The notes below the pieces were generated by a model, which did not search any database, was not told where the DNA came from, and was given only the letters and a program-made list of their open reading frames with translations. The position numbers were made by a program, and so were the translations under genes. From assembly GCF_013046825.1 (NCBI RefSeq), contig NZ_CP053187.1, positions 2,142,001 to 2,206,000 of the forward strand: DNA of 64,000 nucleotides. The letters run 5' to 3'. Position 1 is the first letter of the stretch; each line of letters begins with the position of its first letter. This DNA comes from Turicibacter sanguinis (GTDB lineage: Bacteria > Bacillota_I > Bacilli_A > MOL361 > Turicibacteraceae). Positions 57,319 to 60,570 of this stretch are shown here, piece by piece.

Positions 57319-57927
57319 TGTTAAATGGAAGGATGCAGTTTAATGAATTTAAGTGAGCGAATCGGATGAAACCAGGAGAGGGATATGTTTTATTTAATCA
57401 AGCAATGTATGTGAAAGGGAAAAGCTATTATCTTTTCTGAATCATCTAGTTAAACTCGAATTAAAGCGTGAAAAATCACCTCAAAAGAATATTAAGCTAT
57501 TGTCCTACAGTTGTTCATTCCATTAGTGATAAATTTATTTAGTCAAATCAGATTTTATTTTAAACACGATCTGTTTGGTCAACTGAATCAGTTGAGATTA
57601 ATTGCTCTTTTAGAATAGATTAACTTTCAAGGAATGATTTCTCTAAAAGCTCAAGGCTAAAGGAAACGGGCGCTTTAATTTACTATCGTCAGTTCGTTTG
57701 TCAAAGGAAATGAAAAGTCTTTTTATCAAAAAGAAGCGGTGATTCAATGTTTGAGTTACGTTGAAGAAGGATAAAAAATTAAGGCTTACATCAAGTTAAA
57801 CCCCAATAAGAGCAAAGAGGACTTGATCTTGTCCTTGGTGAAACAAGGTGAAGCTGATGGACTGCGTTAATTGATGAAGGTCGAAAAAAATAAAGAAAAG
57901 GTTAGCAAGGATGGGGAAGCAACATGA
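57319..57927 (+). pseudogene. Decayed gene upstream of the YgjP-like peptidase
   Basis: Several in-phase fragments lie in order. Frame 57319 onward reads GRMQFNEFK, a TGA, then ANRMKPGEGYVLFNQAMYVK and a second TGA near 57438. A shifted frame reads NHLVKLELKREKSPQKNIKL and stops. The last part, from about 57694, reads SFVKGNEKSFYQKEAVIQCL and continues with two in-frame TAA codons to a TGA at 57925-57927. That TGA overlaps the ATG of the next gene, as a once-coupled gene would. I do not recognise the family. Fragments with sense codon bias argue against chance. Confidence 0.6.
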
Positions 57928-58583
57928 AATTACAATTCGAGACGTTTGAAGTTTTACTTGAACGTAAAAATATTAAAAATATGTACTTAAAAATTAGACC
58001 AAGTGGTGAAATTGTCGTGACGGCGAATTCGAAGATGGAACTTTCGTTTATTAAAGACTTTATTTTATCTAAAGAAACTTGGATCCATCAAAAGCTGCAG
58101 CAGATAGCGAATACTTCAACGGTTCTGTCAAAAGATGAGATTCGTTATTTGGGGCAGACATTAAAAAAGCGTCGATTGGCTTCTAATCACACGTGTTTTT
58201 CAATTGAGGCAGATAGTTTACGACAAGAAATGCCGCCAAGTGTCAGCGAAGAGAGGGCTGAACGGTTATGTGAGGCGTGGCTTCAAAAGCAGTTAGAAGC
58301 GTTAATTCATCAATATATGAGAAAGTATTGGCGATATTTTGAGCAGTCAGGAATTCGGCCTGTTGAAGTGAAATATCGTCAAATGACATCAACATGGGGT
58401 GTTTGCCGTCCTGTTAGAGGGAGTATTACGTTTAATAAGCGTTTGATCCATGAGAAAGAGACGTTTATTGAATATGTGGTGGTTCACGAATTATGCCATT
58501 TGATTCATCCTAATCATAGTACGAAGTTTTATGAGTTAGTCGCTTGTTTATTACCTCAGTGGAAAGTATATGCTAAAAAATAA
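57924..58583 (+). CDS. YgjP-like M48/DUF45 metallopeptidase domain protein
   Basis: A 219-residue protein of the YgjP/DUF45 (SprT-like) family. The zinc motif VVHELCHLIHPNHSTKFYELV has HExxH with a third His and is complete. Family members are cytoplasmic and lack proven substrates; they often accompany DNA restriction or repair genes. The N-terminal YLKIRPSGEIVVTA is typical. The ATG overlaps the end of the decayed gene before it. Confidence 0.87.
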   Translation: MKLQFETFEVLLERKNIKNMYLKIRPSGEIVVTANSKMELSFIKDFILSKETWIHQKLQQIANTSTVLSKDEIRYLGQTLKKRRLASNHTCFSIEADSLRQEMPPSVSEERAERLCEAWLQKQLEALIHQYMRKYWRYFEQSGIRPVEVKYRQMTSTWGVCRPVRGSITFNKRLIHEKETFIEYVVVHELCHLIHPNHSTKFYELVACLLPQWKVYAKK

Positions 58584-58623: not shown

Positions 58624-58629
58624 TATAAT
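58624..58629 (+). promoter_or_regulatory. -10 box of the amtB leader
   Basis: TATAAT, 13 bases before the first hairpin of the amtB leader. The -35 is weak. Confidence 0.45.
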
Positions 58630-58636
58630 GAGGTAT

Positions 58637-58703
58637 AGACAAAGAGGTCTTAGATAAAAGATAAAAGGTGGACAAAGGCGTTCTCAAAAGAGGACGCCTT
58701 TTT
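58637..58703 (+). promoter_or_regulatory. ANTAR-type antitermination leader of amtB (candidate)
   Basis: Hairpin P1: AGAC (58637-58640), loop AAAGAG, GTCT (58647-58650). Hairpin P2: GGAC (58670-58673), loop AAAGGC, GTTC (58680-58683). Both loops are six bases with A at position 1 and G at position 4, the rule for ANTAR-protein RNA targets. P2 uses bases that form the 5' arm of the terminator at 58674-58703, so binding to P1/P2 would prevent termination. Such leaders are known in Firmicutes nitrogen genes under EutV/AmiR-type regulators. The regulator gene is not in the window. Confidence 0.7.
58674..58703 (+). terminator. Leader terminator (attenuator) of amtB
   Basis: 12-bp stem AAAGGCGTTCTC / GAGGACGCCTTT with an AAAA loop and five T, located about 90 bases before the amtB start and inside its transcript leader. 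Confidence 0.88.
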
Positions 58704-58790
58704 GATTTTCTTCTGACGTCAAAGAACAATCGTAACTCACCCCATTTCGTTAAAGAAAACAGTTTTTTAAAAATTGAGGAGGGAATGAAT

Positions 58791-60047
58791 ATGACGATTG
58801 ATTTAAGTGTAGTGATTGATACGCTATGGATGGTCATAGCATCCATTTTAGTGTTTTCGATGCAAGCTGGTTTTGCTTTAGTAGAAAGTGGATTTACACG
58901 GTCTAAAAATGCCGCCAACATTATGATGAAAAACTTTATGGATTATTCCATTGGAACGATTATTTTCTTTATTGTTGGGTTTTCACTTATGTTCCATGGT
59001 AGTGTTGCCGGTTTATTTGGTATTCCGGATTTATGTGTAAGTGGTGATTATACCTCTTTAGGATTGATAGTTCCGCTACTTGCTTTCGTCTTTTTCCAAA
59101 GTGTGTTTTGCTCAACTTCAGTGACGATTGTTTCAGGAGCCGTAGCTGAACGAATGAAATTTTCAAGCTATCTGATTTTTAGTTCCTTGATGACGGCTAT
59201 TATTTATCCGATTAGTGGTCACTGGGTTTGGGGTGGCGGTTGGTTAGCACAACTTGGATTTCATGATTTCGCTGGTTCATCAGTTGTCCATGCGCTAGGT
59301 GGATTTGCCGCTCTTGCTGGTATTATATTGCCTGGAGCTCGGCGTGGAAAATTTAATCAAGATGGGAGTTCAAATACTATTCATGGTCATAGCCTAACAA
59401 TGGCTGCTCTTGGTGTTTTTATTTTATGGATTGGATGGTTTGGATTTAATGCAGGTTCAACATTAACTGCGAGCGATCCATGGGCCATTGCTCATGTTGT
59501 CATGACCACCAATTTAGCACCAGCAGCGGCGGCTGTTACAACGTTGATGATGTCATGGTTCAAAGGCAAACCAAGTGTGGGAGCGGCATTAAATGGTTCA
59601 TTGGCTGGATTAGTCGCTATCACGGCAGGTTGTGATTTAGTTTCACCACTAGGAGCGATTGCGATTGGGGTCATTGCCGGAATGGTTATGATGTTTGGAA
59701 ATGATTTATTAGAGCGAAAATTTAAACTTGATGATGCAGTAGGGGCAATTCCTGTTCACGGTTTTTGTGGGGTTGTCGGAACAATTTTGACTGGACTATT
59801 TAGTACAAGCAACGGCTTGTTTTATACCGGAAGCTTTAGCTTTTTAGGAATTCAAATAATAGGTGCCTTCGTGATTGCTTTGTGGGGATTTGTCATGGGA
59901 TATCTTCTACTAGCTCTTTTGAAAAAAATCAGTGGAATACGGGTAAGTGCAACAGAGGAAGAGAATGGATTGGATTTATCTGAACATGCTGAATCTGCTT
60001 ACGGTGAATTTTTACTCAAAGAAGATGTCAAAACATCTGAAAACTAA
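58791..60047 (+). CDS. amtB: Ammonium transporter AmtB
   Basis: A 418-residue Amt/MEP/Rh-family channel with 11 membrane segments. Both conserved channel histidines are visible, in GHSLTMAALGVFILW and in IPVHGFCGVVGTI, with FGFNAGST and GHWVWGGGWL. It takes up ammonium. ATG 58791 has GAGGAGGG seven bases upstream; the ATG at 58785 is too near this site. A glnK (PII) gene usually follows but is absent here. The acidic C-terminal tail (about 25 residues) is long. Confidence 0.94.
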   Translation: MTIDLSVVIDTLWMVIASILVFSMQAGFALVESGFTRSKNAANIMMKNFMDYSIGTIIFFIVGFSLMFHGSVAGLFGIPDLCVSGDYTSLGLIVPLLAFVFFQSVFCSTSVTIVSGAVAERMKFSSYLIFSSLMTAIIYPISGHWVWGGGWLAQLGFHDFAGSSVVHALGGFAALAGIILPGARRGKFNQDGSSNTIHGHSLTMAALGVFILWIGWFGFNAGSTLTASDPWAIAHVVMTTNLAPAAAAVTTLMMSWFKGKPSVGAALNGSLAGLVAITAGCDLVSPLGAIAIGVIAGMVMMFGNDLLERKFKLDDAVGAIPVHGFCGVVGTILTGLFSTSNGLFYTGSFSFLGIQIIGAFVIALWGFVMGYLLLALLKKISGIRVSATEEENGLDLSEHAESAYGEFLLKEDVKTSEN

Positions 60048-60085: not shown

Positions 60086-60401
60086 CTATCAAAAAGGAGG
60101 CCAATAGGCCTCATGAAAAGTAAATAAATTTGGGGTAAATTTATTGGTTCTCTGGAAAAGAGAGTAAACTAGATTGGTTCATCTAATTTTCAAAATATAG
60201 AAAAGAACAGCCATTCAAGTGGCTTGTTTCAATAATAACATATTTTTCCTTAAAATGAAAGTGTTTTTGGATAAAAATGTAATAAAAAGCCAATAAATGT
60301 AATAAAATGTTATCTAAAAGAGGTGCAATTCTTTCTAAACTCTAAAATAGAGGATTTAATTGAAAGGGGAGTGAAATTGTAAAGAAAGGAAGCAAGTGAA
60401 G
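60086..60401. other. Intergenic region after amtB
   Basis: About 300 bases without a gene. A hairpin GAGGCC / GGCCTC with an AATA loop lies at about 60096-60111 without a T-run. The rest is AT-rich. Confidence 0.4.
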
Positions 60402-60467
60402 ATGAGATCAATGCGTTTAAATAGTGTTAGCTATCTTATTTTAGTTGGAACTCGTTTAGTTGTTTAA
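60402..60467 (+). other. Possible 21-residue peptide gene in a small transcript
   Basis: ATG 60402 to TAA 60467 would encode MRSMRLNSVSYLILVGTRLVV, with AAGGAAG about ten bases upstream. A 9-bp hairpin, CGTTTAGTT (60453-60461) / AACTAAACG (60474-60482), covers the end of the frame, and a good terminator follows at 60536. The unit could be a small membrane peptide, a leader peptide or an sRNA; coding is not proven. Confidence 0.35.
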
Positions 60468-60535
60468 TGAAAAAACTAAACGACCTAGCGTAAATAAATA
60501 ATATGACTATTTATGAAACCTTGTTAAAGGATTAG

Positions 60536-60570
60536 AAAAAAGAAGTGTTCTCTCGGACACTTCTTTTTTT
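60536..60570 (+). terminator. Intrinsic terminator
   Basis: AAAAAAGAAGTGTTC / GGACACTTCTTTTTTT with a four-base loop (TCTC, last pairs include a wobble). It ends the small unit before the SOS-type promoter. Confidence 0.92.

What the first reader, a model, noticed from the sequence alone, without database searches (positions are those of the whole stretch)
58637..58703. ANTAR-protein antitermination target upstream of amtB
The leader has two 4-bp hairpins with six-base loops, AAAGAG and AAAGGC, each with A1 and G4. The second hairpin takes its right arm from the 5' half of a 12-bp terminator (58674-58703), so the two states exclude each other. This is the architecture described for ANTAR-domain regulators (EutV, AmiR, NasT type), and Firmicutes nitrogen genes are known targets. 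Nothing in the window encodes the regulator. The loop rule, the overlap and the amtB context together make chance unlikely, although each 4-bp stem alone is weak.
Basis: partly seen in the sequence, partly recalled or inferred. Interest (0 to 1): 0.75.

Follow-up and report, generated by a model that had tools for sequence, protein, structure and literature searches.

The report
ANTAR antitermination leader upstream of amtB
The RNA made just ahead of an ammonium-transporter gene in the gut bacterium Turicibacter carries a two-hairpin switch for an RNA-binding "anti-stop" protein; the one such protein in the genome lies next to the glutamine synthetase gene, which carries the same switch, so the two genes of ammonium capture are probably controlled together.

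Summary
P1 (AGAC-AAAGAG-GTCT, 58637-58650) and P2 (GGAC-AAAGGC-GTTC, 58670-58683) are hexaloop hairpins with A1 and G4, and P2's right arm lies inside the 5' arm of a 12-bp terminator. The combination occurs once in the window and in none of 2,000 shuffles. The ANTAR reading is strongly supported. The Turicibacter genome encodes exactly one ANTAR protein. Its gene sits directly upstream of the only glutamine synthetase gene, and the gap holds a second promoter, dual-hexaloop and terminator unit. A covariance model built only from glnA leaders ranks the amtB leader second in the genome. The leader is conserved in all three Turicibacter genomes with amtB and, more loosely, in other ANTAR-bearing genera; stems show compensatory changes. 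ANTAR targets before ammonium-transporter and glutamine synthetase genes are already described (Ramesh 2012; NitR of Clostridium), so this is a new member of a known kind. What differs: a degenerate receiver domain; no HisKA_2 kinase, PII or recognisable GlnR/TnrA found; and P1-P2 linkers of 15-36 nt, against 5-12 in eut leaders. The signal input is unknown; feedback-inhibited glutamine synthetase is an untested candidate. No binding or expression data exist here.

The parts
58624..58629 (+). -10 box TATAAT of the probable amtB promoter; transcript start about 58636
   Evidence: Sequence; kept in the alignment of three Turicibacter amtB leaders and at nearly the same distance from P1 in glnA leaders. 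The -35 is weak: TAAACT at 17 nt, 3 of 6, not flagged by the promoter scan.
58637..58650 (+). P1 hairpin AGAC-AAAGAG-GTCT, A1 and G4
   Evidence: P1 pairs 100% kept in 15 leaders with two compensated pairs
58651..58669 (+). 19-nt linker between P1 and P2 (longer than the 5-12 nt of E. faecalis eut leaders)
   Evidence: comparison PMC3369931
58670..58683 (+). P2 hairpin (antiterminator) GGAC-AAAGGC-GTTC, A1 and G4
58674..58703 (+). Intrinsic terminator: 12-bp stem 58674-58701, loop AAAA 58686-58689, U run to 58703; its 5' arm contains P2's loop and 3' arm
58776..58783 (+). Ribosome-binding site GAGGAGGG of amtB
   Evidence: Sequence, conserved in relatives
58791..60047 (+). amtB, ammonium transporter, 418 aa (TIGR00836 444.9 bits, cut-off 343.3; PF00909)

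Best explanation
58637-58703 is a cis-acting target of an ANTAR-domain antitermination protein and controls read-through into amtB. By default the nascent leader folds the 12-bp terminator and transcription stops at about 58703. When the ANTAR protein encoded next to glnA is active, probably under nitrogen limitation, it binds the P1 and P2 hexaloops. P2 is thereby held, the 5' arm of the terminator is captured, and RNA polymerase reads on into amtB. The same protein reads an equivalent leader before glnA, so glnA and amtB form a two-target ammonium-assimilation regulon. Shown here: the RNA architecture, its conservation and covariation, the single ANTAR gene, its glnA-leader twin, and the co-occurrence across genomes. 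Inferred: binding, the direction (activation on nitrogen limitation), and the signal input.
For: Architecture exact and beyond chance (0 of 2,000 shuffles). One ANTAR protein in the genome (PF03861 41.7 bits, cut-off 27.3), aligning end to end with the ANTAR regulators Rv1626 (1S8N) and EutV (6WSH). The ANTAR-glnA gap holds promoter, P1 AGAC-AAGGGC-GTCT, P2 GAAC-AATGGG-GTTC and terminator. A model built only from glnA leaders (R1) ranks the amtB leader second in the 3.0-Mb genome: 32.5 bits, E 0.009, next hit 23.6 bits. A promoter-free pattern finds only the glnA leader, the amtB leader and one coding hit. The amtB leader is conserved in 3 of 3 Turicibacter genomes with amtB; the G006 amtB leader has both A1/G4 loops, G051 has a good P2 with a P1 loop AACTAG (G4 lost), G029 a single hexaloop overlapping its terminator; G037, with amtB but no ANTAR gene, has none. 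All 13 ANTAR genes in 12 genomes are followed at once by a hexaloop hairpin (12 with A1/G4 in the first) and, in 12 of 13, by glnA. Leader hits fall in 10 of 12 ANTAR genomes and 1 of 48 others, Fisher 9e-9; without the five seed genomes 5 of 7 and 1 of 48. Compensatory changes at 5 of 8 pairs, 96.7% of cells paired against 85.4% in shuffles and at most 46% when slid.
Against: No binding, term-seq or mutant data. Stems are only 4 bp and on its own the terminator is far more stable than the P2 state (-21.4 against -9.9 kcal/mol for amtB), as expected for protein-dependent antitermination but not proof of it. Linkers are 15-36 nt, while EutV fails when its linker is changed to 14 nt or lengthened by 20 nt. 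P1 in the G051 amtB leader and in the second G006 ANTAR leader lacks G4; P2 stems of the G029 and G040 glnA leaders form only two pairs. Part of R1's score comes from the -10 box.
Confidence: 0.93

Rival explanations
1. Plain intrinsic terminator of the upstream gene (57924-58583), with the hexaloops there by chance.
For: A strong 12-bp terminator lies about 90 bp after the upstream stop codon; each 4-bp stem alone is weak.
Against: A TATAAT box sits between the upstream gene and the terminator. Loops and stems are conserved with compensatory changes while the linker varies. Same unit before glnA next to the ANTAR gene. 0 of 2,000 shuffles.
Confidence: 0.03
2. A small-molecule riboswitch or T-box-type attenuator of amtB.
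For: Leader with a terminator and an alternative hairpin.
Against: No Rfam family at gathering score in the window. Mainly two 14-nt hairpins are conserved, too little for a ligand-binding aptamer. Co-occurrence with ANTAR genes.
Confidence: 0.01
3. amtB is under GlnR/TnrA-type control at its promoter and the leader only tunes it.
For: GlnR/TnrA is the usual control of glnA and amtB in many Bacilli (established knowledge; GlnR-GS circuit in PMC9249791).
Against: Six MerR-type proteins in the genome, none a GlnR/TnrA: best score to NCBIfam's TnrA model 37 bits against a cut-off of 140. No site better than 6 of 8 defined bases at either leader, scored from 150 nt before P1 to 300 nt after its start. 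No PII.
Confidence: 0.03

Closest known systems
EutV dual-hexaloop leaders of eut genes, Enterococcus faecalis (PMC3369931, PMC8934654)
   Same: P1 and P2 hexaloops with A1 and G4; P2 overlaps an intrinsic terminator; REC-coiled coil-ANTAR protein; residues that contact RNA in EutV (Lys149, Glu160, Met172) are kept in all or nearly all 13 members (K144, E155, M167 of the own protein).
   Different: Linker 15-36 nt rather than 5-12; receiver degenerate and no HisKA_2 partner found; EutV Tyr164, which stacks on G4, is an invariant His here; targets are amtB and glnA, not eut.
NitR of Clostridium saccharobutylicum (ANTAR regulator of GS/GOGAT genes; cited in PMC6316151)
   Same: ANTAR protein linked to glutamine synthetase, reported to induce nitrogen-assimilation genes on nitrogen limitation by antitermination.
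   Different: The primary paper was not held, so protein and leader sequences were not compared; here the regulon reaches the unlinked amtB.
ANTAR leaders upstream of ammonium transporters and glutamine synthetase predicted across bacteria (Ramesh 2012, PMC3369931; Stewart and van Tilbeurgh 2012, PMC3369936)
   Same: Same RNA motif, same gene classes.
   Different: Turicibacter is not named in the main text; supplementary tables could not be read here.
AmiR/AmiC and NasT/NasS (ANTAR proteins whose pseudo-receiver or receiver is held by a ligand-binding partner protein; PMC7496416, PMC3795266)
   Same: ANTAR output with input not by a kinase: a likely parallel for this protein.
   Different: No AmiC- or NasS-like neighbour seen; the constant neighbour is glnA.
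GlnR-GlnA operon of Gram-positive bacteria (PMC9249791, abstract)
   Same: Nitrogen regulator encoded directly upstream of glnA; nitrogen control of glutamine synthetase.
   Different: GlnR is a DNA-binding repressor; here an RNA-binding antiterminator takes that place.

Membership tests
ANTAR-responsive dual-hexaloop leader | Two short hairpins with six-base loops, A at 1 and G at 4 in both | tested here: met
   0 of 2,000 shuffles have it with an overlapping terminator
ANTAR-responsive dual-hexaloop leader | P2 overlaps the 5' arm of an intrinsic terminator | tested here: met
ANTAR-responsive dual-hexaloop leader | An ANTAR protein in the same genome | tested here: met
   Exactly one
ANTAR-responsive dual-hexaloop leader | Stems kept by compensatory change in relatives | tested here: met
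   96.7% of cells paired, 5 of 8 pairs with double changes
ANTAR-responsive dual-hexaloop leader | A1/G4 conserved in relatives' amtB leaders | tested here: met
   Both loops in Turicibacter G000, G003, G004 and in G006; exceptions: P1 of G051 (AACTAG) and a single hexaloop in G029
ANTAR-responsive dual-hexaloop leader | P1-P2 linker: variable in the published motif definition (5-12 nt in E. faecalis eut leaders) | tested here: inconclusive
   19-21 nt in Turicibacter amtB leaders, 30-32 nt in Turicibacter glnA leaders counted from 4-bp P2. Outside the range that works for EutV, but the motif as defined in Ramesh 2012 allows a variable linker
ANTAR-responsive dual-hexaloop leader | ANTAR protein binds the leader and read-through depends on it | not testable with these tools
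   Needs EMSA, in-vitro transcription, deletion strain
EutVW-type kinase-driven ANTAR system | Receiver with acidic pair, phospho-Asp, Thr/Ser, Lys | tested here: not met
   Own protein keeps Asp and Lys but has SQ for the acidic pair; members in G018, G029, G040, G047 and G051 lack the Asp; PF00072 below its cut-off, 21.6 against 30.2 bits
EutVW-type kinase-driven ANTAR system | HisKA_2-type sensor kinase in the genome | tested here: not met
   No PF07568 match; other kinase families not searched

The most novel reading that the evidence does not exclude
The ANTAR protein with its degenerate receiver is controlled directly by glutamine synthetase: glutamine-bound, feedback-inhibited GlnA sequesters it, so glnA and amtB terminate when nitrogen is plentiful. 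This would be an RNA-level counterpart of the Bacillus GS-GlnR/TnrA switch, in a lineage where GlnR, TnrA and PII were not found.
Probability: 0.25. Interest if true: 0.75.

Novelty: new member of a known kind. Interest (0 to 1): 0.42.

Why it matters
It supplies the likely nitrogen-control circuit of Turicibacter, a common gut genus: one ANTAR antiterminator, one glutamine synthetase, one ammonium transporter, and no recognisable GlnR, TnrA or PII. It gives a small regulon in which ANTAR recognition with long linkers, single hexaloops and a degenerate receiver can be tested, and it poses a sharp question: what is the signal input if the phosphorylation site is not usable?

Tried and rejected
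Rfam scan of the window: no family at gathering score. The THF riboswitch model RF01831 was searched in the own genome; it is not an ANTAR model and nothing rang anywhere, so it is uninformative. PF03861 hits in G034, G038 and G056 look like the ends of MurQ-type sugar-phosphate etherases, not ANTAR (my reading of the sequences), and were not counted. The other R1 hits in the own genome (E 0.56 to 7.8) lack two A1/G4 hexaloops of four or more pairs: rejected as further targets. The third pattern hit at 297602 lies inside a 468-aa ORF: rejected. MAFFT alignments A2 and A3 misaligned the G006 leader and were not used. A8 was built from hairpins already delimited by eye, so its pairing counts lean towards the structure. 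The G044 leader hit (E 0.084, no ANTAR gene) lies inside a coding frame: treated as chance. No match in phage records, uninformative.

Full report
OBSERVATION. The finding is exact. Upstream of amtB the sequence reads TATAAT (58624-58629), then AGAC-AAAGAG-GTCT (58637-58650), a 19-nt linker, and GGAC-AAAGGC-GTTC (58670-58683). Both loops have A at position 1 and G at position 4. A 12-bp intrinsic terminator occupies 58674-58701 with a U run to 58703; its 5' arm includes the loop and 3' arm of the second hairpin, so the two cannot form together. On either strand of the 64 kb no other place has two A1/G4 hexaloops with an overlapping terminator, and 0 of 2,000 dinucleotide shuffles of the intergenic stretch and none of six shuffled windows have one. 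The leader folds far better than its shuffles (z -4.4). The gene is an ammonium transporter; its start is taken as ATG 58791 behind GAGGAGGG, not the in-frame GTG at 58668.

THE REGULATOR. The window lies in a 3.0-Mb single-contig genome whose nearest named relative by the ANTAR protein (74% identity) is a Turicibacter sp.; the genus assignment rests on that relative. The genome has exactly one ANTAR protein. Its gene lies directly upstream of glnA, the only glutamine synthetase gene. The gap between them contains TTGATT-17-TATAAT, then AGAC-AAGGGC-GTCT, GAAC-AATGGG-GTTC and a terminator: the same unit as before amtB, with an identical P1 stem.

HELD-OUT TEST. A covariance model built from five Turicibacter glnA leaders only (R1) was run on the whole genome. 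The glnA leader scores 97.7 bits and the amtB leader is second with 32.5 bits (E 0.009); the next hit has 23.6 bits. That model includes the -10 box. A promoter-free pattern of two loops gave three matches: glnA leader, amtB leader, and one inside a coding frame.

RELATIVES. amtB is present in three of five Turicibacter genomes, and all three have the leader, with P1 identical and P2 GGAC/GAAC-AAAGGC or AATGGC-GTTC. Outside the genus, G006 has a full dual hexaloop before amtB, G051 a P2 with a P1 that lost G4 (AACTAG), and G029 one 3-bp hexaloop (AAC-AATGGC-GTT) overlapping the terminator; G037, with amtB but no ANTAR gene, has none. Of 13 ANTAR genes in 12 genomes, all are followed directly by a hexaloop hairpin (12 with A1/G4 in the first), and 12 by glnA; the exception precedes what reads as pyrG. 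A model of both leader types (R2) hits 10 of 12 ANTAR genomes and 1 of 48 others (Fisher 9e-9). Removing the five seed genomes leaves 5 of 7 against 1 of 48 (my count). Genomes are related, so these are not independent trials. Pair counting on 15 leaders shows 96.7% of cells paired, five of eight pairs with double changes, against 85.4% in column shuffles and at most 46% when slid.

PROTEIN. The protein aligns end to end with Rv1626 (1S8N) and EutV (6WSH). Of the EutV residues reported to contact RNA, Lys149, Glu160 and Met172 are kept; Tyr164, which stacks on G4, is an invariant His here (the correspondence is mine, by alignment). The receiver is degenerate: the acidic pair is SQ in this genome, and in G018, G029, G040, G047 and G051 the phospho-acceptor Asp is absent. 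No HisKA_2 kinase, no PII, and no MerR protein that scores as TnrA were found. Other kinase families were not searched.

MECHANISM. Most likely: terminator by default; under nitrogen need the ANTAR protein binds P1 and P2, stabilises P2 and lets polymerase read into amtB and glnA. This follows the mechanism shown for EutV (PMC3369931, PMC8934654) and the nitrogen-limitation response reported for NitR (PMC6316151). Energies agree with a default-off switch: -21.4 free against -9.9 kcal/mol with P2 forced. Not shown here: binding, direction and signal. The missing phosphorylation residues and the nearly constant glnA neighbour suggest input by protein contact, as for AmiR or NasT, perhaps with glutamine synthetase itself; that is inference.

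KNOWN OR NEW. Ramesh 2012 lists ANTAR leaders before ammonium transporters and glutamine synthesis genes, so the class is known, and this is a new member. Differences worth testing are the long linkers (15-36 nt against 5-12, with EutV failing at 14), single-hexaloop variants in relatives (in line with the single-hexaloop minimal motif of PMC8934654), and the degenerate receiver.

Noticed in passing
window 58709-58723; L004, L005; L015, L017, L019: A few bases past the terminator, amtB leaders carry a palindrome whose centre differs between species but stays palindromic (TGACGTCA / TTTTGAGCTCAAAG / TTTTGGGCCCAAAG), followed by a conserved ACAATCG-like stretch; three glnA leaders have TTTTGATCAA or CTTTGATCAAGG at the matching place. 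Possible second shared element.
   Followed up: partly
L016 1675-1850 (G030): ANTAR gene followed by a single A1/G4 hexaloop AAAGAC-AAAGGC-GTCTTT near the probable transcript start, overlapping a terminator, before a gene that reads as pyrG (CTP synthase, glutamine-using) instead of glnA.
   Followed up: partly
L011 1420-1500 (G029): amtB leader with a single 3-bp hexaloop AAC-AATGGC-GTT overlapping a terminator; the amtB match there comes in three pieces with stops.
   Followed up: partly
L027, L053 (G006): A second ANTAR gene in G006, again followed by a leader and a second glnA-like gene; its P1 loop AATAGT lacks G4.
   Followed up: no
window 60400-60567: Between amtB and the next gene (a DinB-like polymerase by eye): a short frame MRSMRLNSVSYLILVGTRLVV ending in an inverted repeat (CGTTTAGTT/AACTAAACG), then a terminator-like hairpin GAAGTGT-ACACTTC with a T run; looks like a leader-peptide attenuator.
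   Followed up: no
L022, L025, L026: The Pfam ANTAR model (PF03861) rings weakly on the C-terminal part of MurQ-like proteins, a false-positive source for ANTAR counts.
   Followed up: partly
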